Below are positions 5,301 to 63,866 of a stretch of DNA of 64,000 nucleotides, one piece after another. The DNA comes from Trachythela sp. YZ-2020 (lineage: Eukaryota > Cnidaria > Anthozoa > Malacalcyonacea > Clavulariidae). Numbering within the stretch: position 1 is the first letter of the stretch; each line of letters opens with the position of its first letter. The translations under genes were made by a program, and so were the position numbers. Under the pieces are notes generated by a model. It worked only from the letters and a program-made list of their open reading frames with translations. It did not search any database and was not told the DNA's origin. Where the stretch lies: positions 2,041,501-2,105,500 of the forward strand of contig JADLSH010000355.1 of the NCBI GenBank assembly GCA_016169945.1, read 5' to 3'.

Positions 5301-8300
5301 TAAGGGCAATCCCCTAATGGTCCAGTGTTACTACAGGAGGAAACCTACACTAAACTAACTATATTTATACTGGATAGCTCTATCAGTTCTAAACTGTTCT
5401 TCATAAAGGTCCACTAAGGGTCATCATTTATGGTCCTGTGTTACTACAGGAAGAAACCTACACTAAACTAACTATATTTATACTGGATAGCTCTATCAGT
5501 TCTAAAATGTTCTTCATAAAGGTCCAGTAAGGCCCTGTGTTACAACGGGAGGAAACGTAAACTGAACTCCCACTTTTTAACTGGATAGCCGTATGTTAGT
5601 AAAGGAGAGTAATCCCTTATTGAACCAGTGTTAATACGAAGGGTCTTCGCTCGAAACGTCGAAGTTCTCATTGTATATAGATTGATCCAACGCAGCAACA
5701 GTATTTCGTAAAGACACTACCTACGCTGGTACCACACGTTAAACTTAACTAACTCTATTTATACTGGAGAGTTCTATCAGTTCTACACTGTTTTCTCTTG
5801 AGGCCCAGTAAGAAGCATTTCTTATTGATCCACTGTAAGGAAGAAACAATGAAACATGCAACTAAACTACCTTTATTTAAACAGGATAACTCTTTAAGTT
5901 CTAAACTGTTTCCGCTAAAGGTCCGGTTATGGCAATCATATAGTACAGTGTCTGGAAACGCGGCAAACTTGAAAGTTTATAGCCATGTCTGTGGGTTAAT
6001 GTTGAGGGTGTACTGAGAGTGCACGTTTTCTTTGTTTTACAAATGTTAATATTCAGCTGCAGGGATTTTATTTGCTGCTTCCTTCATTATGCTAGGAGAA
6101 CAATGTGTTTACTGAGCGTGAAGGTGCACAAACATGAACAAAAACATAGAACAAAGACACTGTGTTATAGGGACTATGTGGCAACCAAGCGGTCAAGCAA
6201 GGGTCATTCCTTACAGCTCCCGTGTTACTACTACAGGAGAAAACCTAAACTAAACAAACTCCACTTACTTATCTCGCAGCTATTTCCAATCCAAGGCGAG
6301 GGACAAGCACACTCATACTGACTATCGCTAAGCCGTCTACACGTCCCCCCATTTTTGCATGGTTTGTTCAAACACGGCGAGTATGCCCCTAGTGTAAAAT
6401 AGATATGTTTACATTGGGTTGAATGGCTTAACCAATAATAATGATTGGTACTGTACATCCTCTATAAGCCAGTTCGGAGTTTCGAGGGGAGTCTATTATA
6501 GGGGAAGTCTATTATAGGGGGAGTTTATTATAGGGGGAGTTTATTAAAGGGGGAGGGCTTATATATATGGGAGCTTATTAGGGGGGGCTTATTGGAGAGG
6601 GCAGCTTATTAGATATGGGAGCTTACAGTATTAAGGAGGAGCTTATTAGAGGGGAAGCTTATTAGAGAGTGGAACTTATTAGAGGGGGAGCTTATTAGAG
6701 AGGGTAGCTTATTAAGAGGGTACAAGCTTATTGTAGGGGCGAGCTTATTATAGGGGGGAGGTTATTATAGGGGGAGCTTATTAGAGGTGGGAAATTTCAC
6801 GGTACCTTAATGTTGTCATGCATCGATTTAGTTACAAAATCAGTCTTGTTTTAATCTGATGAATTGAAATACTAGATCATAACTTACTTGCTGCCAAACA
6901 CTGTCCTTTTGGGTTAAGGGTAAATCCTCCAGGGCACACACACTCTCCAACAGCATCACAAATCAAATCCGCCGTGTTTGGACCTGATGCCTTTTGACAC
7001 TTACAAGCTACAAAATAAGATCAGAAAATACTACCATTGACACATTGTAAGTAATATAGAAAAATTTAAATACCTTGGATATTGATCATTATCAGTTCGA
7101 AAACTTTAAGAAGAGATTTAAACCCACATGACGTATATAGGTGTTGTTACAGTGTATACATTAACGATCATTATATTATATGAAGTTGGCACTGACAGAA
7201 AAGTAATGTTTTTTCATTCTTTTTTATTATGTTTACCACTCTGAGGTGGACGGGAAGCCTTCACAGGTTTTACAACCCAATTGACAAAGGTTCCGAGGGT
7301 TAGTTAGTGTTTAGCAAAGTAGGAAAACCGACGTACCCGGCGAAAAACCTCAAAGCACAGGAGAAAATCAACCAATCTCAACTTTACACGAGTTTATCAA
7401 GCACAGGGACATTACCTAAATTTTTTCAGTATGGACTTCAAAATTTTTCCCAGTGATATGTACTTGTTCAAGGTCCTATATATAGAATCACTTCAGGTAC
7501 GCTATTGTTAGTTTAAAACTTACTTTCACAAAACTGTCCAGAAAAGCTCCCTTTGCATTTACAAGCAGGTTTTCCATCCTCATTGATGCATTCTCCATCA
7601 TTTAAACACGGGTTAGGAAGACATGAGTCCGTTACTGAAAGATTTTTATATGAAAATAGAAGTGAGACTAAATGTTGAAGGATTTTTTGTAGGTGGAAAT
7701 TTTCGAGCGAAAATTATGTACATATCTTAGACCTAACCAGGAGCAGTTGCGATAAATGCAACTATAGTTTTAACACGAGAATTTCGCTTACTTTTTTCAC
7801 AATCTTTTCCACTGAATTTGGATGAGTGGCAGACACATCTGTAATCAGCATTCTGTAGAGCCACACATTGACCTTTATGACTGCAAGGACTTGGAACGCA
7901 AGGATTCTTTTCTATAAGGAAAAAGTACGACTTTATGAACGCATTAATTAAAAAGAATTAAAGTAAGAAACCTTAAAACTAACCCTTGGGCACTGAACTG
8001 AACTGAACTGAACTGAACTGAACTGAACTGAACTGAACTGAACTGAACTGAACTGAACTGAACTGAACTGAACTGAACTGAACTGAACTGAACTGAACTG
8101 AACTGAACTGAACTGAACTGAACTGAACTGAACTGGATTAAGCCTTGCTTATCTTCGCAAGTATTCAACAACAGCAAGAAGGAAGCAAGGAAAATTAAAC
8201 GTACCTTCACATTTAGAGCCAGAATAACCGCCGATACAAAGACAGTCATAACCACCTTGCGTGTTTTCCTTACACGTAGCACCGTTCTTACAGGGGTTCG

Positions 8301-36420: not shown

Positions 36421-39400
36421 ATGTCGGGAGTACAAACAGAAGCCAAGGTGGACGATCTTAAACGAATAATCGCCGTTCAATACAGGGAAATTTTGCTCAA
36501 AAACGAGCGGCTAAAAGGACTTGAAGACTTAACAAGAATTTGCAGTCAACTGGAAGAAAAGCGGCAGAGTTGGAAGACCAGGGCGGACAATAATGAAACT
36601 GCTCTAAGACGAGCAGAGGCGAGGATCGCATATTTGAACAAGAAGCTTGGTATAGGGCCTCAAACGGCTTCTGATATCGATGTAGTAAATCCTGGGGTTT
36701 CAAGAAAGGATTTCGACGCAGTTACCAAAGAAAATATCAAGTTAAAAGAAGCTTTGGAACATATAGTACCGACAGAATTGGGCGGTAAAGATGTAGTTGT
36801 GGTAAGTATGTCGGAAAATGGCGGTCAATGCCTTGGTTGAATAGCTTGTATTAAATCTGTTTAAACGTCAATTTGAACGGGTTTAATTTAACCTATTTTG
36901 ACCCTATCTAAGAAAGATAGAATGGAAAGCTATGGATAGGTTTTTGGGCGCTTTTAATGAAACAGAAAAATGCAAATTTAAACTAGAAAGTTCGTTGAAT
37001 TATTTGGACTTTTGGAGAATAAAAAATTTAGCGAAGCGAAAACTGGGAAATCCCATTCCCAGAATTCCATGATGCAGAGGTACTTCCCCCACAACAGGTT
37101 CAATCAGGTTTGGTTTCTTTTTACGGTAATAATCTGTATTCCTGTTATGTCTTGTATTGGAACTGGTTTTAATTACAATGCCGAAGAGCTATTAAAACAC
37201 GCCGGGTCAGCAGAGGCCAAAATTGTACCATCTACTTGAAGGCAAATTCGCGGGTATTTGCGGGTATCAAATGTCATCTTAATACCATTCGTCTGGCGAC
37301 TGACTAGTGTATTTACATTATATTTACGCGCATATTGTGGAGGATTTATGCAACGCGCAGATAAATAAATAAAAGGGCTATCAAGACAATGTTCTAAGCT
37401 TTCGTTGCATATCAAACTTGTCGACTAATATTTCAGTAACATAGCCGAAAATGTTCGATATTTTGTTGATATTTTGCGCCTACTAGGCGGTTAAGAATGT
37501 TGTGCCAATAAATTGCCTAATTTTCGCTTCAATAAACTTTTTCTTGGAGCAAGTTATGAATGCACAATTATGGCTGATTATTAAATGAATATCACACGAA
37601 GAATCGTATGTTTTTTGTTTTCAGTATTATTCATATATTTAGCCCAAAATACGTCTGCCGTGCCATGAATATTTGTGTTAGCGATATGTTAATATTCATA
37701 TTTTAATGTTATATTCCTTGTTGCCTGCGAGCAACAATAGACCAGCTACAACTACATTTTCGACACGCCACAATAATATGATCATAGATAATTGTTATTC
37801 AAATACAGAAGTAAAAAAATTGTATGGAAAACGCTTGCGTACAAGACGTACAAGCTTGACCACGGATAGTTCTGTGATAATCACAAGACACGAGGTCTGA
37901 ACTCTGAAGCGCAATAATAGCGTGTAAACGATCTTAAATTTTGGAAAATTCAGACAAATATACAAAAAACAAAAAACATACGATTCTGGTCCTGTGATAT
38001 ACCAAAAACCAATCATGATTACATCCTCTATACTCACATGTGGAAAAAGTTTTATGAAGCCAAAATTCTGTTGGAAGGTTTCTTCCGTTGCCTAAAGGAG
38101 CCTACATTTCCCATAACCTTTCTCATTTAACGGCTGAACATTTGTGTAGTATATTTACTATCAATCGAAAGCGAACAGTCTGAACGTTTCTATTGTCTCG
38201 CTTATAGATCTGTACTCTGTAAGTCTGTATCGAATTTCCATGAGAAGCGCTCTTTTATATGATAGTTAGCTGGTCACCAGACTTCTGCTCTATGACGCGC
38301 ATTTCTCTGGAATTTTTGGCTTCAAATCGATGACACAATTTTGGCCTCTGCTGACCCGGCGTGAAAGGATGTTTAAAGGCTACCGTTTCCATATATGAGA
38401 CCTCTAATGAGGGTCCCCTATACTTCTCGTATAATTAACAGTTATTCTACGAACTCGAGTTGTATATGAGCTGATAGCCGACGAGGCGCGATAGCGCCGA
38501 GTCGGCTATCAGTCATATACAACAAGAGTGAGTAGAATAAGTGTTTTATTATATACACAAACTCTGGATATGAACAGAACATTTTGGCATATTTTTTTCA
38601 AGTAAAACTTGAATTTCTTCTTCATTTAATTGTTCAAATCTGCCAGCCATTTTTCTACTTTTCTCTACTAGCAGGATATGAGCTATTATTATACTCTCAC
38701 ATTCTTTCACATATAATTGACCAATCATATGTCATTGATAGGATCACGTGCCTGTCCGACATTTTACGATGTAGGACAGGAGCATATTGGACAGTAGCTT
38801 ATCGCCGCTTTTTTCCTTGTTTATCTCACCTTTTTACATGTTTTGTTAATTTTAAACACAAAACAAACGGTGGGGCGAAGTAATGTAAAGCAAAGAAAAG
38901 GATTTGGAAAATTGAAGTTGTTTGTTTTATCAGTTTTGTTTAAAAATAAAGCGCGGGAAAACATGTCTTTGAAATTCAGTTGTTTACAACAGGTCGAAAG
39001 GTTAGTATGGCCAATTAAAAAATTAAAATCGGAAACCGAATGTTGGCGGCCATTGTGTTTCAACATGCCTTTCGTTGCCGTGCAACTACAAGAGGCACAC
39101 AAGTCTTGAAGCCCTGGATAGGCGTACGAGTTCCGTTTAGGCATCGAAGTTAAAATGGCTCTTAACTGTGACTATTTCTTGCGCAGACAAAATGTGTGAA
39201 ATGGAAAACAACCTTTTAACCCGTTTTTGAAAGGAGAAATATACTACTTACGCTATTAAAAAATAAATAATAAAAAAAATAAAAATCCGCCCGCCCGCCC
39301 CATGTTTTTCAAAAAATCTGATGAAAAACTAAAAATTTATTTTAATTGGCCTATATGAGTTCTTTCTCTGATTTAAATCATGTCAAATCGTCTTAAATAG

Positions 39401-42400
39401 ACTGAAAGGTAGTTAGTATTATTAAGGTACACTTTTGCTTTCTATAAAACTAGTTTATTTACTTTTTGTTTTCGTCGAGTTTTCGTAATTTAAGCAAATT
39501 CGCGGCCGAAGTGCCACACAAGTTTTCGCTGTAGTTTTATCGCATTGTTGTTGCATTATACTCTCGTTTACAACGTGTTCTTGTGTTATAAATGTTTTGT
39601 TCGATATAATAAAACTCCTATTGGATTCATCTTCGCCCAATATGGCAAAATATTAAGTCTCGACTTGCAATATTGGGCTCGACCTTCGGTCTCGCCCAAT
39701 ATTGAAGTCTCGACTTAATATTTTGCCATATTGGGCTCAGAAGAATCCAATAAGATATAATATCCTGCTAGTAGATAACCAATCAGATTGCAGAATACCT
39801 CATATCCAGAGCTTGTGTATATAATAAAACCTAATAAACGATTAATTCATTTTACATGCATATGAAAATAATATCTTTTTATTTATCTTTAACTTGAAAG
39901 ATTAACATTTCTGAGTTTGAAAGGCATTCAACTTGTGCTTTGTCACAGTTTCTTTCCTCCACTCTCTATCTTTCATGCCTTGAAATATTTAAAGCAATAT
40001 CTAGAATGTATCCGGAAAGATTCTGTTATTCATAATCAAGCGAATCAAACAATACCTAAATGCATTTGAATGGACAACCCACTGTGACTTTATCTTAATT
40101 TGTATCGTATATAAAAGTAATAAATTATTAACCCATTAACTGGCAGTACCTTACCATTGACGAGTTATATTGTCTGCCGTTGGACACAGTAGAGTACTAA
40201 AGTAGGGCGCATCTGGGCGCATTGCCAGCTAATGAGTTTAAAATTTTGTATGCCTTAATCATGTCTAGAGGTCCACAATAGGCTTCTTAAATCCGGCTCC
40301 ATATTTTCTCTCGTTCCCGCAATCCTGATAGCTTTTCTTAGTTAATCTCGATCCCGAATAGTATTAATACAACTAGGGCTCTCATGCAAAAGCAAATTTA
40401 CAAATTCCCTGGCAAGGGCTCTGAAATTCCTCAGTTTAAGTGAGTTTTCCCTAAAATTCCTTAAATTGCTTCATTCATTCACTTTTTTGTGACTTCTGCT
40501 CAATGACTTCATTATTTGTTTACAACTTATTAAATGAACTACATAACAGCTAAAATTGTGCAATTCACCAAACAGTCACACTCTAATTTTCAGGCAATCA
40601 TGCCCAACATGTGAATACAATTCATGTTTGCGTAGGGTAGTCCGGGTGTCAGGTTTCTTGAGAAAATTGGAGTCACATAAACGCCATTTCCTGCACTTCT
40701 GAGCAGTTGAAAAAGACATAAAGTGCACAAATCATTGTCTAAAGGGGGTAGATACTAGGGTTGATACCTTGCAAAAAAGGTAACAATTTGCCACTTAACA
40801 CTTTTTACCATTCTTATGTAGAAAAATAGAGAGCTCGATGAACTGGTTACCACATTGCAAGATGATCGCGCACATCGTGTTCACCATATCAAAGCCAGTA
40901 GTGAAGACGATCTTGCTGCAAAAGTTAATGAGCTCACAAAGCTAAACATGAAGTTAGAGCGATCTATGAATGCAAAACAGGTTTTCTCTGAAAAATTATT
41001 GAAAGAGAACAAGAGGCTGAATGATATTGTGGAAACACAATACAAAAATCAGGTTGTACAAAGTCGGGATGTTCCTGATGGACAGGCAGTCAGCGATGAT
41101 ATGAACGTGAGTTGTGTACAGTTAAACTACAATAGGGCTTTTGATTTACTTAGTTTGAATCAGTGCTTTCTATCAGGATGGGAGCATATATAGGACTGCT
41201 TCCTCCTATGACCAGCTTATAGTCCATAAACTAACTTTCACCTAAACTAAACTAAAGTAACTTCATTCATTCATATAGGATAGTACTATCAGTTCTAAAC
41301 CGTTCTTCCCTGAGGTCTGATTAAAAACATCTCTTGGCATGCAGTGTTACTTGTACAGGATAAAACTGGGGTGTCCTGAGAAAACCTAGAAGCACTTTCC
41401 CATGCAGGGCTGAGCCAAAATTATAATCAGACAATTGCACTTTACAGGAATCAGAGGTGAAAAGGTCATGCACTAACCACTGTGTCTTCCACACCCATAT
41501 TAATAGACTGGTCATTTAAGGATTAGTTTAAGGGTAATAAATTTCTGTAATAAAATTGCGGACGGTTGTTGATATGGAAATTGACACAATTTGTGTGATG
41601 GTATAATTTAGGCACAGGTGACTGAAACCACATCTGTTACTGCAAAAAATGGTTTCACAAATGAAGAACGAGAGGCATTGTTGAAAGAGATTGAAAGAAA
41701 AAATAAAATTTTATCAGAACAAGAAGCAAACATCCATGAATTATCAGCAATGTCTAGAATGCATCCAGAAAGATTCAAAAATCGAGCGAATCAAACAATA
41801 GCTAATGGCATTTGAATGGACAACCCAACCATATCTTAATTTTTTAGTATATGAAAGTAATCAATTATTAATCTAACGTTTACAATGTCAATGGTTGATT
41901 GATTAAGAATTTGAACTAAAGGGCACCATCGAAACCGAAAAACATTACCGAAACCAGCAGATGGTTGTCAACTTCAGAAGTGTTAACACTTTTCGCAAAA
42001 AGATTAAACTAAATATCGACTAAATCTTGAATATAATTGCACCCACATACAAGGTCACTAAATTAAAATAATCAACATTAACTATTTTCTCACTGTGAAG
42101 TGTGACCTACGAAATTTACATGCAATGTCAATTTAGAGCAAAGTGATAATCCTTACTTTGCATCTTACAAATGCTGAACTTATTTAGCTAATTGGAGTTA
42201 TTTCAAAAGATTTTCAGAGTTTTTAATATATATATATTACATACACCGTTTGTTGAAAACCTACAGGTGCTGACCTGCTTTCATTTTAGATCAGCAACAG
42301 TGCCGCATTTGTGCAGGAGCATTAGAAAATTCTGGCAAAAAAACAAATTTAACAATATTTAGCACTCAAAATCTAAAATATGATACATTTTTGCAGGCCA

Positions 42401-45400
42401 ATTTTGAAGTTTTTAATTTTGCTCGCAGCCACTAAAAATAGTTATGAGTCATTTTTTTAGCTACTTCTGAGGCCTGCCACCATCTGCTGCACGATAATGC
42501 TTAATGAAATCCACCCAAATCTCACTGTATACTGCACTTTTTATGTAGGAAAATCGAGAGTCTGTCACTACTTTGCAAGATGATCACCATAGCAAACAAT
42601 TGGAAACAAAATTAGTCAGTAACGAACTAGACAATCCGGCTGCAAAGGTTAATGAGCTAACAAAGCAAAACATGGACGTAAAACAGGTGAAAGAGAACAT
42701 GAGGCAGAATGATCCTGTGGAAAACCATAAAAAACTACAGGTTGTAGAAAGCCAGGGTGTTCCTGATGGACAAGCCACGGGGGATTATATGAACGTGAGT
42801 TGTGTTCAGTTAAACTAGAGTAGGGCTTTTGATTTACTTAGTTTGAATCAGTGCTTTATATCATTGATGGGAGCATACATACAGACATGCTTCCTCCTAC
42901 GACCAGCTTTCGTTTGATTCGTCATTGAAGCAGACAAATGAGAGTTTGCCTGCACAAACCATCTTAAACTAAACTAATTTCATTCATATACAGGATAGCA
43001 CTATCAGTTAGAATCAGACAATTGCACTTTACAGGAATCAGAGGTGAAAGGCACATGCACTAACCACTGTGTTTCCATTAAATTGCGGATGGTTGTTAAT
43101 GTGGAAATTGTCACAATTTGTGCATAATTTTGACACAGGTGACTGAAAACCCATCTGGTACTCCAAAAAGTGCTATTTCAAACGAAGAGCGAGAAATATT
43201 GTTGAAACCCAATGAACAAACAGCGACTAAACACCAAGAATTCCAAAGAGAGAATACAGAGTTGAAGACCCAACTAAAAAAGATTAACTCACAATTAAGT
43301 GAAGCTAAAAAGAAAAATAACCATTGGCGAAAGAATTGTGTTGAGCTCGCCGGGAAAGTTGCGAGCTTGAACGGAAGCTACGAAAGGCTGGAAAGGAAGC
43401 TACAAGAATCCGAGGAACACATTTCTTCATTAAAGCAGACGAATGAGGATTTGTGCGCACAAGTTGCTAGTGTAAGTATATTATATAACATAGGTGTATT
43501 TTAATTCTATGGATATATATATATATAAGTAACAAAAATGGGGCAATTCTGGAATAAAACTAACAAGTAATCTTCGAAACTGCTTGCAAAAAAGGTTAAA
43601 TTTTGATGTTTTACTCGTAGTTTTACAGTTTTAAACATGGGATTGACTGGCGAATTTATGAACAAGGCCTTGTATTTGAAAAAAAATCAATATTGAATTT
43701 TCCTTTCAGCTGAAAACGTACGAGGCTGACTTCAAGAACGAACGTGAGGATAAAGAAAGGCTCCAGAAAAGATTAAATGAACTGCAACAAGAAAGCGAAC
43801 GCCTGGTAAGTGAAAACCAATCACATATGGCAACAGTAAGTCATTTAGAAAGTCAAGTAAGGAATACTTTTAATAAGTGGGTTTCACTAAGCACTATCGT
43901 GCAGTAGCCTTGTATTTGAAAAAAATCAATATTGAATTTTCCTTTCACTGAGTTGAAAACGTACGAGGCTGACTTCAAGAACGAACGTGAGGATAAAGAA
44001 AGGCTCCAGAAAAGATTAAATGAAGTGCAACAAGAAAGCGAACGCCTGGTAAGTGAAAACCAATCACATATGGCAACAGTAAGTCATTTAGAAAGTCAAG
44101 TAAGGAATACTTTTAATAAGTGGGTTTCACTAAGCACTATCGTGCAGTAGCCTTGTATTTGAAAAAAATCAATATTGAATTTTCCTTTCAGTTGAAAACG
44201 TGCGAGGTTGACTTCAAGAACGAACGTGAGGAGAACGAAAGGCTCCAGAAAATATTAAATGAAGCACAACAAGAAAGCGAACTCCTGGTAAGTGAAAACC
44301 AATCACATATGGCAACAGTAAGTCATTTAGAAAGTCAAGTAAGGAATACTTTTAATAAGTGGGTTTCACTAAGCACTATCGTGCAGTAGCCTTGTATTTG
44401 AAAAAAATCAATATTGAATTTTCCTTTCAGTTGAAAACGTACGAGGCTGACTTCAAGAACGAACGTGAGGAGAACGAAAGGCTCCAGAAAATATTAAATG
44501 AAGTGCAACAAGAAAGCGAACGCCTGGTAAGTGAAAACCAATCACATATGGCAACAGTAAGTCATTTAGAAAGTCAAGTAAGGAATACTTTTAATAAGTG
44601 GGTTTCACTAAGCACTATCGTGCAGTAGCCTTGTATTTGAAAAAAATCAATATTGAATTTTCCTTTCAGTTGAAAACGTGCGAGGTTGACTTCAAGAACG
44701 AACGTGAGGAGAACGAAAGGCTCCAGAAAATATTAAATGAAGCACAACAAGAAAGCGAACTCCTGGTAAGTGAAAACCAATCACATATGGCAACAGTAAG
44801 TCATTTAGAAAGTCAAGTAAGGAATACTTTTAATAAGTGGGTTTCACTAAGCACTATCGTGCAGTAGCCTTGTATTTGAAAAAAATCAATATTGAATTTT
44901 CCTTTCAGTTGAAAACGTACGAGGCTGACTTCAAGAACGAACGTGAGGAGAACGAAAGGCTCCAGAAAATATTAAATGAAGTGCAACAAGAAAGCGAACG
45001 CCTGGTAAGTGAAAACCAATCACATATGGCAACAGTAAGTCATTTAGAAAGTCAAGTAAGGAATACTTTTAATAAGTGGGTTTCACTAAGCACTATCGTG
45101 CAGTAGCCTTGTATTTGAAAAAAATCAATATTGAATTTTCCTTTCAGTTGAAAACGTGCGAGGTTGACTTCAAGAACGAACGTGAGGAGAACGAAAGGCT
45201 CCAGAAAATATTAAATGAAGCACAACAAGAAAGCGAACTCCTGGTAAGTGAAAACCAATCACATATGGCAACAGTAAGTCATTTAGAAAGTCAAGTAAGG
45301 AATACTTTTAATAAGTGGGTTTCACTAAGCACTATCGTGCAGTAGCCTATATTTGAAAAAAATCAATATTGAATTTTCCTTTCAGTTGAAAACGTACGAG

Positions 45401-46320
45401 GCTGACTTCAAGAACGAACGTGAGGATAAAGAAAGCCTCCAGAAAAGATTAAATGAAGTGCAACAAGAAAACGAACGTCTGAGACGTGAAAACCAATCAC
45501 GTCATTTAGAAAGTGAAGTAAGGAATACTTAATTAGTGTGTTTCACTAAGCACTATCGTGTGATCAACTGGCAGTTATCAGATTGAGAAAATACCGTTAA
45601 ATCGTTTAATAAATGTAGTAGTCTTGTATTTGGTGACAAATAAATAGAAATTATGGTGATGCAGTTTAATTTTATTGCACGAGAGCAAGGCTCCCAGGCC
45701 AAGGAGGTATTGGTGACGTAATTATCGTATTACAGGACTCGGAATGGTACACGTCGCATTTCTAGAAAATATTTTAGTTGTTACGTAGCTGCATGTCAAT
45801 AGGCTGTATAGAAAAAATCTGCTGACGCATGCCATCCAATTTTACTGATAACTCGCATGTCTAGTTACCACTGTTATAATATTGAAGTATGGAATCAAAC
45901 AAACTATATAACCAAGCATTTAGATTATATATGTGGGTGAATTGGCAAAGCGCATAAACACGTGTTAGCTTATTAGATGTTAGAGCTATCGTATCGCGTA
46001 CTTGAAATAGAATACTTATATACAGTATAACTGTTAATATAACACAGTATTTCTTATTAAAAAGGGTTGCAGACACCCGAACGGCTAACCTTACTAGTAT
46101 AATAAAACCAATAACTCAGAATGTTGTATTATTCATGCATGATTATTTTGTTCTTAGTTATACCGTTAACGTTCTTAATAACCACACATTGTTTGCATTG
46201 CAGGACCGAAACCGACAGGCCCGACAGCCATTTATCGAGTGTCCGTATTGCTCTAGAAACTATCCATATCGACATCTCATTGAAGGCCACCTTCAGGATT
46301 GTATCAGGAATGTGTTATAG
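36421..46320 (+). CDS. NEMO/optineurin-type coiled-coil protein with eight UBAN-like exons and C-terminal zinc finger
   Basis: Predicted exons, all phase 0: 36421(or 36403)..36801, 40822..41106, 42549..42794, 43139..43471, then 43710..43856, 43953..44099, 44192..44338, 44431..44577, 44670..44816, 44909..45055, 45148..45294, 45386..45517, and 46204..46320. Counted from 36403 this gives 846 aa. The N-terminal half is Glu/Lys/Gln-rich coiled coil. Each repeated exon carries YEADFKNEREDKERL or a variant, matching the D-F-x2-E-R...E-x-L core of the UBAN motif, which in NEMO, optineurin and ABIN proteins binds linear ubiquitin chains. The last exon has C-x2-C-x12-H-x3-C, the exact spacing of the NEMO zinc finger. 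Family members act in the cytoplasm in NF-kB and autophagy signalling. One UBAN is usual; eight tandem copies are not. Exact orthology and exon use are inferred. Confidence 0.75.
36802..40821. other. First intron of the NEMO-like gene, with palindromes and a MITE
   Basis: No internal gene supported. It contains a palindrome at about 38440-38530 (GAGCTGATAGCCGACGAGGC / GAGTCGGCTATCAGTCATAT), another at 39618-39765 (GCCCAATATGGCAAAATATT mirrored), an inverted TTAACCCATTA MITE (40128-40240), and at 39990-40100 a decayed copy of the sequence that ends the exon-3-like segment at 41750-41850. Confidence 0.6.
39990..43200. repeat. Tandem segmental duplication of NEMO-like exons 2-3
   Basis: Exon 40822..41106 and exon 42549..42794 are homologous (shared LQDD, AAKVNELTK and VPDGQA segments and the same AAC|GTGAGTTGTG donor). 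The segments starting at 41618 and 43139 share CACAG|GTGACTGAAA and a NEERE motif. A third remnant of the unit lies at 39990-40100. The duplicated unit is roughly 1.5-1.7 kb including intron. Confidence 0.8.
41618..41815 (+). CDS. Possible alternative terminal exon of the NEMO-like gene
   Basis: The exon homologous to 43139..43471 but with no donor: it runs in frame (NEEREALLKEIERKNKIL ...) to a TGA at 41813-41815. If spliced after 40822..41106 it would give a short protein without UBAN exons or zinc finger. If skipped, the full protein is made. The acceptor could be 41612 or 41618, both in frame. Confidence 0.4.
   Translation: MTETTSVTAKNGFTNEEREALLKEIERKNKILSEQEANIHELSAMSRMHPERFKNRANQTIANGI
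43710..45540 (+). repeat. Tandem array of eight UBAN-encoding exon units (239-bp period)
   Basis: Each unit has a TTTCAG acceptor, a 147-bp exon (132 bp in the last) and a ~92-bp intron. Units 3-7 are nearly identical at exactly 239-bp spacing and alternate between two types: B (TCEVDFKNEREENERLQ; units 3, 5, 7) and A (TYEADFKNEREENERLQ; units 4, 6). Units 1, 2 and 8 carry EREDKE. Unit 2 has a TTTCACTGAG acceptor. Units 1-7 contain three in-frame donors (after CGCCTG/CTCCTG, GCAACA and AGTCAA); unit 8 keeps only the last. Confidence 0.95.
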
Positions 46321-47703: not shown

Positions 47704-50700
47704 TGTGACAACGCTTTCCGTCACCATGGTAACCTCCTTTGCAACGACATCTGGTCCCAATACAATCCGCGAAGAAATGACAATGACTGCAAGAATCATC
47801 TGAAAAACACAACGACATTTCTTTTTAGATCGACAAGCTCTAGATTTCAGAGGGAGGAGAAATATATCACCAGTGAGGGCAATGATCGTAGAGTATTGTT
47901 CATAAATAGCCGAACTCTGCGTTCGCGGTGCAATTGCATTATATACGGACATGAAACGCATACTGACCGCGTTTCTGTTAGGTTATTTCTGTAATCTGAG
48001 CAGTATTATACTAAGAAAAAACGTGTAGTGCTTTGTTAAATACCTGGACATACGCTAATGTCTTAGGATAGGATAGGTAAGGTAGTGTAGTGTACGTAGA
48101 TGATGGTGATACCCTGCTCTATATCTCAGTGTACCTTACCTTCACAATGTATCCCTTAGTGCCCCGAGGAACACTTGTGATAATATCCATTAGTGTACAT
48201 AGATACCTGCCCTATACCTCAGTGTACCTTACCTTCACAATGTGCCCCTGAGTACCCCGAGGAACACTTGCAATAATATCCATTAGTGTACATAGATGAT
48301 GGTGACACCATGCTGGCGTCAAGGTGATGATAGTGGACAGCGGTCGTGTCTATGCAAGTACCACCATTCAGACAGGGGTGAGAGATACATGGAGTCTCAT
48401 CTGAAACATAAAAATATGACATTTTAGGACTCTCATCTAAAACAAAATTTAGTGAAAAAATTAGTATCGCGAGGGCTGTAATATCTCACGGTTCAAGCTT
48501 TCACTGGTGCAAGTAGGTCATTATCGATTGCTATTTATCTGTTTTGTTCTGTTTTGTCACTTTATTCATAGTACATTGCCCTATCAGTTCTAAACTGTTC
48601 TTCCTAGAGGTCCAGTAAGGACCATCCCTTATTTGTCCAGTGTTACTACAGAAGGAAACCTGAACTAAACTAACTTTATTTATACTGGATAGCTCTATCA
48701 GTTCTAAACTGTTCTTCCTAGAGGTCCAGTAAGGATCATCCCTTATTGATCCAGTGTTACTACAGAAAGAAACCTGAACTAAACTAACTTTATTTATACT
48801 GGATAGCTCTATCAGTTCTAAACTGTTCTTCCTAGAGGTCCAGTAAGGGTCATCTCTTCTTGGTCCAGTGTTACTACAGGAGGAAACCTAAACTAAACTA
48901 ACTTTATTTATACTGGATAGCTCTATCAGTTCTAAACTGTTCTTCCTAGAGGTCCAGTAAGGATCATCCCTTATTGATCCAGTGTTACTACAGGAGGAAA
49001 CCTGAACTAAACTAACTATATTTATACTGGATAGCTTTATCAGTTCTAAACTGTTCTTCCTAGAGGTCCAGTAAGGGTCATCTCTTCTTGGTCCAGTGTT
49101 ACTACAGGAGGAAACCTGAACTAAACTAACTATATTTATACTGGATAGCTTTATCAGTTCTAAACTGTTCTTCCTAGAGGTCCAGTAAGGGTCATCTCTT
49201 CTTGGTCCAGTGTTACTACAGGAGGAAACCTAAACTAAACTAACTTTATTTATACTGGATAGCTCTATCAGTTCTAAACTGTTCTTCCTAGAGGTCCAGT
49301 AAGGGTCATCTCTTCTTGGTCCAGTGTTACTACAGGAGGAAACCTAAACTAAACTAACTTTATTTATACTGGATAGCTCTATCAGTTCTAAACTGTTCTT
49401 CCTAGAGGTCCAGTAAGGATCATCCCTTATTGATCCAGTGTTACTACAGGAGGAAACCTGAACTAAACTAACTATATTTATACTGGATAGCTTTATCAGT
49501 TCTAAACTGTTCTTCCTAGAGGTCCAGTAAGGGTCATCTCTTCTTGGTCCAGTGTTACTACAGGAGGAAACCTGAACTAAACTAACTATATTTATACTGG
49601 ATAGCTTTATCAGTTCTAAACTGTTCTTCCTAGAGGTCCAGTAAGGGTCATCTCTTCTTGGTCCAGTGTTACTACAGGAGGAAACCTAAACTAAACTAAC
49701 TTTATTTATACTGGATAGCTCTATCAGTTCTAAACTGTTCTTCCTAGAGGTCCAGTAAGGGTCATCTCTTCTTGGTCCAGTGTTACTACAGGAGGAAACC
49801 TAAACTAAACTAACTTTATTTATACTGGATAGCTCTATCAGTTCTAAACTGTTCTTCCTAGAGGTCCAGTAAGGGTCATCTCTTATTGATCCAGTGTTAC
49901 TACAGGAGGAAACCTGAACTAAACTAACTATATTTATACTGGATAGCTTTATCAGTTCTAAACTGTTCTTCCTAGAGGTCCAGTAAGGGTCATCTCTTCT
50001 TGGTCCAGTGTTACTACAGGAGGAAACCTAAACTAAACTAACTTTATTTATACTGGATAGCTCTATCAGTTCTAAACTGTTCTTCCTAGAGGTCCAGTAA
50101 GGGTCATCTCTTCTTGGTCCAGTGTTACTACAGGAGGAAACCTAAACTAAACTAACTTTATTTATACTGGATAGCTCTGTCAGTTCTAAACTGTTCTCCC
50201 TAGAAGTTCAGTAAGGATCATCCCTTATTGGTCCAGTGTTACTACAGGAGGAAACCTGAACTAAACTAACTATATTTATACCGGATAGCTCTATCAGTTC
50301 TAAACTGTTCTTCCTAGAGGTCCAGTAAGGACCATCCCTTATTCGTCCAGTGTTACTACAGGAGGAAACCTGAACTAAACTAACTATATTTATACTGGAT
50401 AGCTCTATCAGTTCTAAACTGTTCTTCCTAGAGGTCCAGTAAGAGTCATCCCTTATTGATCCAGTGTTACTACAGAAGGAAACCTGAACTAAACTAACTA
50501 TATTTATACTGGATAGCTCTATCAGTTCTAAACTGTTCTTCCTAGAGGTCCAGTAAGAGTCATCCCTTATTGATCCAGTGTTACTACAGAAGGAAACCTG
50601 AACTAAACTAACTATATTTATACTGGATAGCTCTATCAGTTCTAAACTGTTCTTCCTAGAGGTCCAGTAAGAGTCATCCCTTATTGATCCAGTGTTACTA

Positions 50701-53700
50701 CAGAAGGAAACCTGAACTAAACTAACTATATTTATACTGGATAGCTCTATCAGTTCTAAACTGTTCTTCCTAGAGGTCCAGTAAGAGTCATCCCTTATTG
50801 ATCCAGTGTTACTACAGAAGGAAACCTGAACTAAACTAACTATATCTATACTGGATAGCTCTATCAGTTCTAAACTGTTCTTCCTAGAGGTCCAGTAAGA
50901 GTCATCCCTTATTGATCCAGTGTTACTACAGAAGGAAACCTGAACTAAACTAACTATATTTATACTGGATAGCTCTATCAGTTCTAAACTGTTCTTCCTA
51001 GAGGTCCAGTAAGAGTCATCCCTTATTGATCCAGTGTTACTACAGAAGGAAACCTGAACTAAACTAACTATATTTATACTGGATAGCTCTATCAGTTCTA
51101 AACTGTTCTTCCTAGAGGTCCAGTAAGAGTCATCCCTTATTGATCCAGTGTTACTACAGAAGGAAACCTGAACTAAACTAACTATATCTATACTGGATAG
51201 CTCTATCAGTTCTAAACTGTTCTTCCTAGAGGTCCAGTAAGAGTCATCCCTTATTGATCCAGTGTTACTACAGAAGGAAACCTGAACTAAACTAACTATA
51301 TTTATACTGGATAGCTCTATCAGTTCTAAACTGTTCCCCCTAGAGGTCCAGTAAGAGTCATCCCTTATTGATCCAGTGTTACTACAGAAGGAAACCTGAA
51401 CTAAACTAACTATATTTATACTGGATAGCTCTATCAGTTCTAAACTGTTCTTCCTAGAGGTCCAGTAAGAGTCATCCCTTATTGATCCAGTGTTACTACA
51501 GAAGGAAACCTGAACTAAACTAACTATATCTATACTGGATAGCTCTATCAGTTCTAAACTGTTCTTCCTAGAGGTCCAGTAAGAGTCATCCCTTATTGAT
51601 CCAGTGTTACTACAGAAGGAAACCTAAACTAAACTAACTATATCTATACTGGATAGCTCTATCAGTTCTAAACTGTTCTTCCTAGAGGTCCAGTAAGAGT
51701 CATCCCTTATTGATCCAGTGTTACTACAGGAGGAAACCTAAACTAAACTAACTTTATTTATACTGGATAGCTCTATCAGTTCTAAACTGTTCTTCCTAGA
51801 GGTCCAGTAAGGACCATCCCTTATTCGTCCAGTGTTACTACAAGGAGGAAACCTGAACTAAACTAACTATATTTATACTGGATAGCTCTATCAGTTCTAA
51901 ACTGTTCTTCCTAGAGGTCCAGAAAGATTCATCTCTTATTGATCCAGTGTTACTACAAGGAGGAAACCTAAACTAAACTAACTTTATTTATACTGGATAG
52001 CTCTATCAGTTCTAAACTGTTCTTCCTAGAGGTCCAGTAAGAGCCATTCCTTATTGATCCAGTGTTACTACAGGAGGAAACCTAAACTAAACTAACTATA
52101 TTTATACTGGATAGCTCTATCTGTTCTCTATCGGTTTAACCACACAAAAGAAAACAGAGAGAAAGCATGCATTGTTTGGTAGAGTCAAACTGCGGGAAGC
52201 ACTCTTCTCACATGCGATTGAAGCAACTTAATAATTAGGCAACTTCACATTGCAGGATGCGAACCCCAGTCACAGAGGTGAAAGGCACGTGCCTTTATTT
52301 GGCACCAGTTATTATTATTTGTCGTATGTAATTTATCTTTTTACGAAGATAAGAAGTGCGCAAAAACGACAACATACATTCACAATTATTTCCATGATAA
52401 CCGACGCCACAAACACATCTGAAAGATCCACGTTCTTCTAAACATGTTCCCGAGTTCTGACATGGAGTCGGATGGCAAACATGATCTGAAAACGTCATAA
52501 GATCCATTTAGACACTTTATATCACTCTCTATATCGTAATATCTTTTGATAGTAATCCTAAACTAAACTAACTTTATCTATTTATATTGAATAGCGCTGC
52601 GAAATCTTAATTAGTCTTTTCCCTGATGGCCCAAGTAAGACTCATCTCTTTAGTCATCGCTTATATTGGTTTAAAAACTATAATTATAGCTTAATATTTG
52701 TACTGGACAGCACTATCAGTTCCCCCTAGATGTCCCCCCTAAATAGCGCTGCGAAATCTTAATTGGTCTTTTCCCTGATGGCCCAAGTAAGACTCATCTC
52801 TTTAGTCATCGCTTATATTGGTTTAAAAACTGTAGTAGCTTATTTGCACTGGACATTACTATCACTTTCCCTAGACGTCCAATAAAGACGGCCAATAACT
52901 TATTGTTCCAGTGTTACTACAGGAGGAAACCTAAACTAGCACTCGTTTCTCAAACGACTGAGGCGAAATAATAATCAAACAACTGCACATTGCAGAAATC
53001 GAGAGATAAAAGCCTCATACACTAACCCCTCTTTGCCGCCTTGCCACACAACCCTAAAGTAAGAGAACAACTTTACATGCACTAGCTTCACACTGTACAT
53101 ACCTTGACAGTTGATTCCACTATAATGATATTTACAATTGCATTTATATCCTCCAGGTTCTTCAATGCAAGTCCCTCCATTCAAACATGGAGCAGAGAAA
53201 CAATTACTTCGTTCTATACAACACAAAAAATATAATTTGTATGCATCATTTCCTAAGAACACATGCACATTTTATTCATAAGTCAAGTGAATATTTTGAC
53301 CTTGTATATTGTCTTTCCTATAGAAGCGTTTAACTTGTTTTAGAGTTTTATCAACTCTCAAGCCCCGGTCAAACGAGAACAAGAGTTGCATGAGAGTTGA
53401 CTGGATATTACCACGCGTACCGGTCAAACAAGCAAAACTCTCATGAACTTTCATCAAAATTTGAAGCAGCTCAAAGTTGATGAGAGTGCAAGAGAGTTGA
53501 TGAGAGTGCATGAGAGTTGATGAGAGTTGACGAGAGTTGATGAGAGTTGGCGGTCAAACGCTAGCGATGGGACTCTCATAAACTCTCATAAACTCTCATT
53601 GTCGATGTAAAGGTCAACTGTCTCGATTAGCCCCTATGGTTATTACAGTTGGCCTGCACTATACTGTTATTTAATTTTCTTTTTGTAAATATTTCCCTTG

Positions 53701-61300: not shown

Positions 61301-63866
61301 TACAAGGGGGACAGCTGTGAAGGTAAGTGTGATGATGTTGTAGTTGAGGTGGTGCTATAGATTACTAATCTGCCGGCGTTTAGCTTATATGAAACTGTCA
61401 TGGAAACTCTTATCCTCGTTTAGACTGGGGCCAACAATTCCTTCACTAACCTATGTTTCCATTCCTCCCTCTCTTCACTAGCTCAAGATTTCTGTGCGGA
61501 GGCTCCCTGTATGAACGGCGGTTTATGTACTGAAGGTGACGGGGCATTCTTCTGCCATTGCAATCCAGGATTTAAAGGGAAAACCTGCGAATGTAAGTGG
61601 AATGAATACGTTAAAAGTTTTAACATCTTGGTGGAAAACCGCTCTCTCGTTCCTCTGAAGACTTGGACAACGAGTACGATTTTTTTCTGCTTAACGTCTG
61701 CTACTACAAACTCATAGTTGTACTCGCTTTGGCTCAACTGTTGTTATAAAGATGTGCTGTGTCAAAAAGAGGACGATAACAAGTTTGTATTAGCAGATAT
61801 TTAACGGGAAAATCTCGTAGTCGTAGTAAAATCGAAAGCTTACTACTGTGTTCGACCGCCATTTCGCGACTGGCCTAGACCTGTGGCGCATTGTATTATC
61901 TCAATTGATTAGGAGAAATGAACGCAGTTAAATTGACACTCCTAGCTTTTAGAAAACGATCTTTTGTTTCTGCATACCCCAAAGGAAGTGTTACACTTTT
62001 AAAGCCATGAATTTCCATAATATGAACTACATAAAGTATTTTCTCGTCTACAGCAACGGATTTTTGCAACCCCAATCCATGTCTTCACAATGGCGTGTGC
62101 GTGGTTCAAGAGAGTGGGTACAAGTGCAGATGTCTTCCACAATTTACTGGCCTAAACTGCGAAGGTACATTTTCCTGCCATTATCAAAATATCACAATTC
62201 ACCCCTGCAAGTATAAACCAAACGGAGAAATGTCACTGCCTTGTCTTTTTCATTTTAAAGCTAAGAATCCGTGCATTCCGAACCCTTGTACCAACATGGG
62301 GGCCTGTAAAAGATATGGAGCAAAACACGTCTGCGCGTGTCCAAACGGATTCACCGGATCTCGATGTCAAGGTAAGTAAAATTTATGGCACTGTCATTGA
62401 TCAATGGCTTCTCTAATCCAGGAGCTGCCTGGTCAGAGGGAAGGGAAGGCCTGGATAACAGAACTGCCATGAGTTAGCAGAGCAAATATTTAATTGGATC
62501 CGGGCTCCATTTTTGATGTGGTGACTGTTGAACTCTACAATGACAGTTAATCCACCTTTTGAGCTGTGCCCATCCACCCCCCTCACCCACCTCCCACACC
62601 ACCACAGGGTAAATTCCATCGGTTTGGGCGCAAGTTGAGTCACCGACAATCTGACTATGTGATAGGTAGTACTGGCCTACATGGTACCAGTAGCAGATCT
62701 TTTCACCCAACGTGACAGTACCTTTGACTAAAGATTTGTATACTTTTAGAGCAAGATCAATGTTTTGTGCATAGTCCCTGCAAGAACACTGGTAAATGCC
62801 GCTCTTTAAAAGGTGTTCTATCTTGCCACTGTCCGAAAGGGTTTACTGGACTCCACTGCGAATGTAAGTGATACTTGAAGGATGCACACAAGTAGTTATT
62901 TTTGTCCGTCCCACTGTGCCTCATCTCTATAATACTTGCATCAATAGTACGGTTTTTAAACAAGTCGTATGTGTATTGAGCCTTATGAGATCTTGTTTCC
63001 GAATGCTATTCAAAACTATTATGATATAGATGAAGCAAAAAAATCGGTTGTGCAGCGCGTCACACAGACATATGAGACAGACTTTCATCCCACAGAAATT
63101 GGAGTTAGATTATTATGGTGTCCCCGTCATGCTTGTTCCATAATTATATAAATGCACGTGTTTAAGAGTTTAAATTGACATCTTTAAAATTATTTATTCT
63201 TATTGGCGAAGCTTAATGAAGAAATATGATATTTAAACTATTGTATATAGCAAGCAACTGGACAAGTTAGAAATTACTTAACAAAAAATGAAAACCAAAT
63301 CCGAAACTATACGTGTTACTTAAATCATTGCCAGATCAAGAGACCCAAATAAGACGACAACATAAGTACAAGTCACACCATGTTTGGACATGGCTTTATA
63401 GTTTCCACTTTTCCCTATTTTTACTGCATTTTTCTCGATATTTAGTGAAAGATTTATGTGGACAAAATCCATGCGCAAACCGTGGTGTGTGTACGTCAAA
63501 CGGAATTTCCTTTCGCTGTCGTTGTTCTCTTGGGTTTACTGGGGAGTCTTGTAAAGGTACGTTGTACATTATGAAAATTGAATTTTTGAATTTCCCAACC
63601 TGGAATCGAACTCAAGCTTCTTGGCATATTATAGTTTTGAGTGTCTCACTCTCAGTCAAGGAACTGCAAGCTCCAGTGGTTATAGCGCTGTGAGACACCT
63701 CTATTAAGTTACGAATTATGCCATTTTTTATCAAAGGCGTTTTCTGTGTTTATAGAAAACGACAACTGTGACCCAGACCCCTGTCAAAATGGAGGTCGAT
63801 GTTCAAACAACGCTGGAGGATATCGATGCCATTGTGTGCAGGGATACGCTGGAACTCACTGTGAAA
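58387..63866 (+). CDS. EGF-D: secreted EGF-repeat protein, 3' end beyond window
   Basis: Exons: 58387..59092, 59438..59572, 59648..59761, 60108..60218, 60576..60692, 61170..61322, 61482..61592, 62054..62164, 62261..62371, 62750..62863, 63446..63556, 63756..63866, then a GTAAGA donor. All EGF exons are phase 1-1. Exon 1 (235 codons plus one base) encodes a hydrophobic segment at residues 18-30 (signal peptide or anchor), then a long polar linker with basic sites (YSKRRSD) and an acidic end. Eleven EGF modules follow. Module 4 has eight cysteines (ending WRCNDCSCK). Module 5 has a ~17-residue extension before its first Cys. Module sizes and order do not match EGF-B/C, so it is a more distant relative. 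Head-to-head with EGF-C. Confidence 0.85.
59130..59370. mobile_element. TTGATGAGAG inverted-repeat element, third copy
   Basis: Starts AGTGAGAGTTTGCACGAGAG and ends ACTCTCATTGACTCTCATCA. It lies in EGF-D intron 1, about 40 bp after the exon 1 donor, and is nearly identical over 80 bp to the copy at 53335. Confidence 0.8.
59810..60060. repeat. 114-bp repeat family units, inverted orientation
   Basis: Two to three units with TAGAACTGATAGAGCTATCC and GGTTTCCTCCTGTAGTAACA in EGF-D intron 3. Confidence 0.75.
60698..60868. mobile_element. MITE with GGGAGCTTTAGCAGTGACTA ends, abutting a splice donor
   Basis: Left arm GAGCTTTAGCAGTGACTACG and right arm CGTAGTCACTGCTAAAGCTC are inverted. Inner arms continue with ACGAGATTCGTCATTTTCGC and its complement. 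It begins about 6 bp after the exon 60576..60692 donor. Confidence 0.85.

What the first reader, a model, noticed from the sequence alone, without database searches (positions are those of the whole stretch)
43710..45517. Eight tandem UBAN-like exons in one NEMO/optineurin-type gene
The sequence shows eight copies of an exon encoding D-F-K-N-E-R-E-x2-E-x-L inside a coiled coil, followed by a zinc finger with exact NEMO spacing (C-x2-C-x12-H-x3-C). Known family members normally carry one UBAN for linear ubiquitin. An array would be expected to raise avidity or chain-length selectivity, or to scaffold larger assemblies. I know of no described multi-UBAN NEMO-like protein, though I cannot search.
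Basis: partly seen in the sequence, partly recalled or inferred. Interest (0 to 1): 0.9.

Follow-up and report, generated by a model that had tools for sequence, protein, structure and literature searches.

The report
Eightfold ubiquitin-binding-like exon array, octocoral gene
An octocoral gene carries eight tandem copies of an exon that its sister genes mostly have once; five of the eight resemble the part of human NEMO, ABIN and optineurin that grips ubiquitin chains, so the gene could make a rod with several ubiquitin grips, but no transcript or binding data exist.

Summary
In detail: eight tandem exon copies at 43710-45517, motif in all eight, phase-0 splice sites, then a C-x2-C-x12-H-x3-C finger exon. 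The gene belongs to a coiled-coil family whose named database relatives (8 of 9) are octocoral. The same genome has 7 further UBAN-like exons at 6 places, none in an array; 6 of these 7 are 147 bp (49 codons). Forty-nine codons are seven heptads, so copies joined at that ancestral donor give one continuous coiled coil. A nine-row UBAN profile scores copies 1, 2, 4, 6, 8 well above 2412 decoys; copies 3, 5, 7 are weak (E 0.18, one decoy higher). Copies 3-7 lack the basic residue at the NEMO R319 position. So this is an array of UBAN-like elements: three well kept, two intermediate, three weak. Pfam's UBAN cut-off is not met. The NEMO finger spacing is not diagnostic: relatives have x11. Against function: linker exons lost, mostly nonsynonymous change outside exon 1, no transcript available. 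Most likely a recent exon amplification giving a longer, splice-adjustable ubiquitin-binding rod; drift in a relaxed paralog is a serious rival.

The parts
36421..36801 (+). Exon 1 (127 codons), N-terminal coiled coil, phase-0 donor
   Evidence: tblastn identity 60-78% to P0001-P0003 and 69-91% to paralogs; window-lineage dN/dS about 0.19
40822..41106 (+). Exon 2 (95 codons)
   Evidence: 263/273 identical to the L009 paralog exon; splice sites
41618..41745 (+). Broken copy of the following coiled-coil exon, cut by a dispersed repeat (41746-41871); probably not used
   Evidence: 124/128 identical to the start of the L009 exon, then repeat sequence
42549..42794 (+). Exon 4 (82 codons), diverged duplicate of exon 2, open frame
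43139..43471 (+). Exon 5 (111 codons), coiled coil before the array; lacks 33 nt (11 codons) present at the end of the L009 exon
43710..43856 (+). UBAN-like exon copy 1 (type A); in-phase donors after 43805, 43835, 43856
   Evidence: UBAN profile 25.5 bits
43953..44099 (+). Copy 2 (type A); acceptor altered to CACTGAG by a 4-nt insertion
   Evidence: 26.5 bits
44192..44338 (+). Copy 3 (type B: Tyr to Cys, Asn at the R319 position)
   Evidence: type B 11.8 bits, E 0.18; best decoy 12.0, next 6.8
44431..44577 (+). Copy 4 (type C: Asn at the R319 position)
   Evidence: type C 21.5 bits
44670..44816 (+). Copy 5 (type B, exon identical to copy 3)
44909..45055 (+). Copy 6 (type C, exon identical to copy 4)
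45148..45294 (+). Copy 7 (type B, exon identical to copy 3)
45386..45517 (+). Copy 8, ancestral-like (44 codons; 15-nt deletion against the paralogs; no extra donors)
   Evidence: 23.6 bits; 123/132 identical to L011; sister to copies 1-7 in the tree
44100..44191 (+). Example of the 92-nt inter-unit intron: first ~50 nt of the downstream intron joined to last ~42 nt of the upstream intron
46204..46320 (+). Last exon: C2HC zinc finger (C-x2-C-x12-H-x3-C), stop
   Evidence: predicted beta-beta-alpha, mean pLDDT 81 for the best model; fold neighbours include RAD18 and WRNIP1 UBZ, none significant

Best explanation
A gene of a coiled-coil family known here only from octocorals (coiled coil, UBAN-like exon, UBZ-like C-terminal zinc finger) underwent a tandem duplication whose two breakpoints lay in the introns on either side of the UBAN-like exon, making a 239-nt exon-plus-mini-intron unit; unequal exchange raised the exon from one to eight copies (unit structure and copy relationships shown by sequence; the exchange inferred). 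The exons are phase 0, so any number can be spliced in without breaking the frame (shown; usage unknown). With the ancestral donor each copy adds 49 residues = 7 heptads, lengthening one parallel coiled-coil dimer by about 73 angstrom per copy and presenting UBAN-like faces at regular spacing (inferred). Copies 1, 2 and 8 keep most core contact residues, 4 and 6 are intermediate, 3, 5 and 7 are weak, so the rod would offer several M1/K63-ubiquitin sites separated by weaker spacers, with the finger as a further ubiquitin contact (inferred). Its advantage would be avidity or reach along long ubiquitin chains, tuned by splicing (speculative).
For: Amplification: the array was found once in the genome (in 106 40 of 72 candidates were scored); all eight copies form one clade, support 95, copies 1-7 99; the mini-intron is a fusion of the two flanking introns. 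UBAN-like: CC2-LZ is the top Pfam row for the array (1.4e-5), though below its cut-off and hardly ahead of DUF1829 (1.9e-5); best PDB rows are TNIP2 and TNIP1 (E 0.049, 0.1); matrix score beats pattern-preserving shuffles, p 5e-5 for types A and C, 2e-4 for B; a 9-row UBAN HMM gives 21.5-26.5 bits to types A and C, best of 2412 decoys 12.0. Register: with +147 or +126 donors all eight copies share one heptad register, with +96 they do not. At 49-residue junctions the last residue is Gln (Glu in the paralogs), the residue at that place in all nine UBAN rows used. Frame kept: net length differences to the paralog exons compared are multiples of three.
Against: No transcript evidence. Pfam cut-off not met, and none of eight relatives scanned shows CC2-LZ at E 0.1. 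A profile of the family's own UBAN region does not single out UBANs: TNIP2 13th of 33 rows (E 0.031), optineurin 32nd (0.6), generic coiled coils above. Several relatives' sites score in the decoy range of the UBAN HMM (P0001 8.1, P0006 6.4 bits). Five of eight copies have Asn at the R319/R482 position; NEMO R319Q is reported to impair ubiquitin binding (PMC11854354, passages). Exon 2, copy 8 and the finger together carry 2 synonymous and 19 nonsynonymous window-lineage changes, as in relaxed constraint. Linker exons found in paralogs were not found in the window and 11 codons before the UBAN exon are missing. Copy 2 has a poor acceptor.
Confidence: 0.42

Rival explanations
1. Neutral exon amplification in a paralog under relaxed constraint: unequal crossing over multiplied the exon, splicing mostly skips the extra copies or the gene is weakly expressed, and the array has no special function.
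For: High nonsynonymous share outside exon 1; linker exons not found and 11 codons missing; broken exon 3 with a repeat at its end; three of eight copies score weakly as UBAN; an earlier stop trims the last four residues against the paralogs.
Against: Exon 1 lineage dN/dS about 0.19; no internal stop in any modelled exon; net indels multiples of three, though the exon model was chosen for open frames; donor consensus kept at all copies; the array's A-type exons score higher as UBAN than the single-copy paralogs tested.
Confidence: 0.3
2. The array is a set of alternative exons: type A, B and C variants and three alternative donors per copy are chosen one or a few at a time, changing the UBAN surface and rod length rather than adding sites.
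For: Among copies 2-4 all 8 variable sites lie in the first 96 nt and none in the other 143 nt (P 5.7e-4 for that boundary, 0.019 with the boundary at 147); all 7 codons hit change the residue; copies 1-7 gained two extra in-phase GTAAGT donors (8 random substitutions give two new GTRAGT sites in 1.5e-4 of trials).
Against: Signs of mutual exclusion were not looked for; the inter-unit introns (92-143 nt by donor) seem long enough to splice (recalled, not tested); both statistics were chosen after looking.
Confidence: 0.15
3. A structural coiled-coil repeat whose DFxxER resemblance to UBAN is coincidental or no longer functional; the array simply makes a longer rod.
For: Relatives and paralogs mostly have Asn or Ser at the R316/R479 position; family profile matches generic coiled coils as well as UBANs; array not among the six CC2-LZ places in its own genome; some relatives score in the decoy range.
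Against: The nine best of 3598 windows in the relatives and the window gene's upstream part are all the homologous site, in 6 relatives (P0009, where the segment is largely deleted, is not among them); A- and C-type copies exceed all 2412 decoys; the site precedes a C-terminal C2HC finger, as in NEMO.
Confidence: 0.11
4. Assembly artefact: copy number inflated in a tandem repeat.
For: Exons of copies 3/5/7 and 4/6 are identical.
Against: 1.8-kb array inside a 4.43-Mb contig of a 578-Mb, 396-contig assembly; distinct first, second and last copies anchor it. Reads were not available.
Confidence: 0.02

Closest known systems
NEMO (IKBKG) CC2-LZ / UBAN with C-terminal zinc finger
   Same: Coiled coil, DFxxER-type motif, C-terminal C2HC finger; Asp, Phe, Glu and Arg of the motif in all eight copies; 10 of 29 positions identical to copy 1
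   Different: The domain list read gives NEMO one UBAN (PMC11854354, passages); Pfam NEMO N-terminal domain not seen in this gene; array below the CC2-LZ cut-off; relatives' finger spacing is x11
TNIP2 / TNIP1 (ABIN-2 / ABIN-1) UBAN
   Same: Best PDB rows by sequence (5h07, 7eao; E 0.049 and 0.1); 12 and 11 of 29 positions identical to copy 1
   Different: One UBAN (recalled); the rest of the protein was not compared here
Optineurin UBAN and zinc finger
   Same: D474/E478/R479 equivalents present in all eight copies; C-terminal finger
   Different: R482 equivalent is Lys in 3 copies and Asn in 5; 7 of 29 identical; its finger ranks 33rd in the fold search
UBZ zinc fingers (RAD18, WRNIP1)
   Same: C-x2-C-x11-H-x3-C spacing in the relatives; predicted fold 1.1-1.2 angstrom rmsd from ubiquitin-bound WRNIP1 and RAD18 UBZ
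   Different: No significant E-value; the best row by E-value is a C2H2 finger of ZNF406 and by sequence SNAI1; the window copy has one extra residue before the His
Octocoral family proteins (Dendronephthya P0001-P0005, Paramuricea P0006, P0007, P0009)
   Same: Shared exons, UBAN-like segment and finger where the model reaches them (P0003 lacks both; P0009 keeps little of the segment and no finger)
   Different: At most two UBAN-like segments per protein (P0002, P0004, P0005); database names are golgin-, tropomyosin- or interaptin-like or hypothetical

Membership tests
UBAN (Pfam CC2-LZ, PF16516) | Profile match at or above the curated cut-off (35.3 bits) | tested here: not met
   25.8 bits for the array built with 32-codon units, 24.1 for one copy with its upstream coil, not listed for the 497-residue single-copy model; array not among the 6 genome places
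UBAN (Pfam CC2-LZ, PF16516) | Core DFxxER motif with the residues that contact linear ubiquitin (OPTN D474, E478, R479, R482) | tested here: inconclusive
   D, E, R in 8 of 8 copies; the R482/R319 position is Lys in copies 1, 2, 8 and Asn in copies 3-7 (contacts from PMC4999505, passages)
UBAN (Pfam CC2-LZ, PF16516) | Statistical similarity to known UBANs beyond coiled-coil composition | tested here: met
   for types A and C; type B only (E 0.18). Decoys were shuffles and reversals, not other coiled-coil families; one search is against
UBAN (Pfam CC2-LZ, PF16516) | Binds M1- (or K63-) linked ubiquitin as a parallel dimer | not testable with these tools
   needs protein
NEMO | N-terminal IKK-binding domain (PF11577) | tested here: inconclusive
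   Not listed for the 497-residue single-copy model at E up to 1; only a 12-residue sub-threshold match in P0008; genome search did not complete
NEMO / optineurin finger | C-x2-C-x12-H-x3-C finger | tested here: inconclusive
   Spacing met in the window but x11 in all 5 relatives aligned
UBZ finger | C2HC ubiquitin-binding beta-beta-alpha finger | tested here: inconclusive
   Fold similar to RAD18 and WRNIP1 UBZ without significance; profile search of the PDB gave nothing below E 0.2; binding not testable
Octocoral array-gene family | Shared exons 1, 2, UBAN-like 49-codon exon and finger | tested here: met

The most novel reading that the evidence does not exclude
The first protein with a true tandem UBAN array: a continuous coiled-coil rod with UBAN sites every 49 residues (about 73 angstrom), strong and weak sites interspersed, whose length is set by alternative splicing, acting as a chain-length-selective receptor for long M1/K63 ubiquitin chains in octocoral innate immunity or selective autophagy.
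Probability: 0.2. Interest if true: 0.8.

Novelty: new variant of a known kind. Interest (0 to 1): 0.5.

Why it matters
In the passages read, NEMO has one UBAN per chain and pairs two by homodimerising (PMC11854354, PMC4197637). A natural rod with several graded UBAN-like sites, beside single-copy sister genes in the same genome, would let chain-length selectivity and avidity be tested directly by comparing natural 1-copy, 2-copy and 8-copy proteins. It also exposes an octocoral family of possible ubiquitin-reading proteins now carrying golgin-, tropomyosin- or interaptin-like names.

Tried and rejected
Reading the array as the genome's NEMO or optineurin gene: judged unlikely, because the genome has other UBAN sites over the Pfam cut-off and the relatives found are octocoral proteins of another kind (each search scored only about 8000 candidates sharing most words). 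Using the finger spacing as proof of NEMO kinship: rejected. 32-codon exons as the default: set aside in favour of 49, from relatives and heptad register, though the +96 donor is a perfect consensus and may be used. Exon 3 as a working exon: set aside, since I saw no good donor by eye and a repeat runs through its end. Assembly error: judged unlikely.

Led nowhere: searching the database with the array region gave only three D. gigantea relatives already known; the family profile against the PDB did not separate UBANs from other coiled coils; the finger profile against the PDB gave nothing below E 0.2; NCBIfam gave only generic coiled-coil rows for two relatives; Rfam gave 0 matches in the window at gathering scores; the optineurin finger was not among the VIA-align rows. 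Genome searches for the NEMO N-terminal domain (PF11577) and PF16218 (OTULIN family, name recalled) did not complete, so NEMO proper and linear-ubiquitin machinery are untested here. The 10-kb stretch beside the C148:598560 exon-1 match (L026) showed exon 1 only. Structure prediction of the spliced array was not attempted, because joined exons are not read letter for letter from the window. In one search the exon-5 alignment failed (wrong end found) and was redone. In one search some codons are counted at more than one nucleotide, so its counts are approximate. In one search the window row leaves out exon 4, unlike.

Papers: multi-UBAN proteins were looked for in open-licence PMC only. 0 papers for 'tandem UBAN', 0 for octocoral + UBAN, 0 for UBAN + cnidarian + NEMO; some searches were read as listings only; two papers were read as passages and the passages describe no multi-UBAN chain. 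PMC4999505 and PMC11854354 were read as passages only.
Full report
OBSERVATION. All eight encode D-F-K-N-E-R-E-x2-E-x-L. Unit lengths are 243, 239 (five times) and 238 nt. The order of exon types is A1, A2, B, C, B, C, B, A8; copies 3, 5 and 7 are identical over the exon and so are 4 and 6, so a two-unit block was probably multiplied. The last exon (46204-46320) has C-x2-C-x12-H-x3-C and a stop. The modelled exons (1, 2, 4, 5, the array and the last) are joined in phase 0.

WHAT IT IS. A single-copy model of the protein found four relatives at E <= 1e-3 among 7998 scored candidates, all from Dendronephthya gigantea; an alignment search found nine at E <= 0.01: five D. gigantea, three Paramuricea clavata, one unnamed ENA protein. 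Both named species are octocorals (recalled), so I take the window to be octocoral. Database names are golgin-, tropomyosin- or interaptin-like or hypothetical. The window lies in a 578-Mb, 396-contig assembly. A 32-residue query gave 14 places there: the eight array copies and six others. Local tblastn on fetched loci added a second UBAN-like exon in L011, so seven such exons are known outside the array, in six loci. Six of these seven are 147 bp and end GAA|GTAAGG; the seventh (L012) is shortened. L009, L010, L014 and L016 show one each, L011 two. L014 and L016/L017 are very similar genes on different contigs (exon 1: 0 synonymous, 2 nonsynonymous differences; exon 2: 4 and 7), perhaps two haplotypes. 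A 239-nt DNA search found the array only once (40 of 72 candidates scored). Exon 1 gave ten matches, seven of them near full length including the window.

HOW THE ARRAY AROSE. The 92-nt intron between copies equals the first ~50 nt of the intron downstream of the single exon plus the last ~42 nt of the intron upstream, so a duplication with intronic breakpoints made the unit. In an exon tree all eight copies are one clade (support 95), copies 1-7 a clade within it (99), copy 8 outside. Copy 8 keeps the ancestral Arg-Arg-Glu after the core but has a 15-nt deletion.

UNIT LENGTH AND REGISTER. Copies 1-7 have three in-phase donors, giving 32, 42 or 49 codons. Relatives and paralogs carry the homologous residues up to codon 49, so the +147 donor is ancestral. 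The other two are new: against L009, 8 substitutions in nt 97-147 created GTAAGT twice; 8 random substitutions make two new GTRAGT sites in 1.5e-4 of trials (chosen after the fact). With 49 or 42 residues per unit all eight copies share one heptad register; with 32 they do not. At a 49-residue junction the residue four before the Tyr is Gln, as in the nine UBAN rows used; the paralogs have Glu as their last residue. I take the 49-codon unit as most likely; this is inference.

IS IT A UBAN? For: CC2-LZ is the top Pfam row for the array (E 1.4e-5, 25.8 bits) but below its 35.3-bit cut-off, and DUF1829 follows at 1.9e-5 (25.5 bits, over its own cut-off of 22.2), which shows how little such scores mean for repeated coiled coil; for one copy with its upstream coil CC2-LZ is again first (5.2e-5; next CENP-F 2e-4), and for the 497-residue model it is not listed. 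The two best PDB sequences are TNIP2 and TNIP1 (E 0.049 and 0.1). A position matrix from NEMO, optineurin, TNIP1 and TNIP2 scores copies A1 and A2 at 57 and 59, A8 55, C 51, B 39; the best nine of 3598 windows in the relatives and the window gene's upstream part are all the homologous site; against shuffles keeping the hydrophobic pattern p is 5e-5 for A and C and 2e-4 for B. An HMM of nine UBANs, five mammalian rows and four from this genome, gives 23.6-26.5 bits to A copies, 21.5 to C, 11.8 to B (E 0.18), 21.5 and 17.3 to the two paralogs tested, and 17.5, 15.0, 8.1, 6.4 and 5.4 to the sites of P0005, P0004, P0001, P0006 and P0004 that were listed; the best of 2412 decoys is 12.0, the next 6.8. 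Against: a profile of the octocoral family itself ranks TNIP2 13th of 33 and optineurin 32nd, below generic coiled coils; eight relatives scanned (P0003 left out) show no CC2-LZ at E 0.1. In optineurin E478 contacts R479 and R482 of the partner chain, and D474 contacts distal ubiquitin (PMC4999505, passages); NEMO D311N/G, E315A and R319Q impair ubiquitin binding (PMC11854354, passages). By the alignment, all eight copies keep Asp, Glu and Arg at 474/478/479; the 482 (NEMO 319) position is Lys in copies 1, 2, 8 and Asn in copies 3-7; B copies also change the Tyr to Cys. I therefore predict three well-kept, two intermediate and three weak sites.

IS THE GENE ALIVE? Exon 1 looks constrained on the window lineage (4 nonsynonymous, 6 synonymous unique changes, ratio about 0.19); exon 2, copy 8 and the finger together have 19 nonsynonymous and 2 synonymous. 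Net length differences to the paralog exons compared are multiples of three (exon 1 none against L026; exon 2 -18, +9, +3 against L009; exon 4 -57 against L010; exon 5 -75 against L009; copy 8 -15 against L011; last exon -81, +3 against L009), though the exon model was chosen for open frames. Linker exons between UBAN and finger seen in paralogs were not found in the window. Among copies 2-4 all eight variable sites fall in the first 96 nt and none in the other 143, which suggests either diversification of the core or a copying history that I cannot resolve. So relaxed constraint and rapid adaptive change both remain open.

OWN-GENOME UBANS. CC2-LZ matches six places in the assembly, two over the cut-off (C33 and C148:1904879), none at the array or at the paralog loci. 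Translations there read, for example, QMIVYKEDFEKERKDREKLHEEKEKYKHKL and QISVYADDFANERSDRERIQADREAQKERL, which I read as canonical UBANs. The array family thus looks like an extra, divergent UBAN-like lineage rather than this animal's NEMO.

VERDICT. A real, recent exon amplification, found once in an octocoral genome, in a UBAN-like gene; multi-UBAN function is plausible but unproven, and the count of good UBAN copies is nearer three to five than eight.

Noticed in passing
window 48581-52127: Satellite of 31 copies of a 114-bp unit; arrays of similar unit length and wording at 1774-2094 and 5252-5532.
   Followed up: no
window 40822-41745: Exon 2 and the broken exon 3 are 96-97% identical to the L009 paralog while exon 1 has dS 0.215 to it: recent segmental copying or gene conversion between paralogs.
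   Followed up: partly
L011 (C148:1473000-1482900) and proteins P0002, P0004, P0005: Other family members carry two UBAN-like segments; in L011 each UBAN-like exon has its own copy of the preceding coiled-coil exon, a different route to more than one UBAN.
   Followed up: partly
L012 (C148:2023000-2032900), about 12 kb before the window: Diverged family member with a split exon 1 match and a UBAN-like exon cut to 32 codons.
   Followed up: no
nt 158-198 of each array unit (e.g. about 44110-44150): The inter-unit intron holds, near its start, a stretch that also matches 33 other listed places in the genome: the end of a dispersed repeat.
   Followed up: no
window 63292-63693: EGF-like exon (PF00008, E 1.6e-6).
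   Followed up: no
L027 (C33), L029 and L030 (C218): A UBAN-containing 288-residue open frame and two similar UBAN genes on one contig in the same genome; candidate TNIP-like genes.
   Followed up: partly
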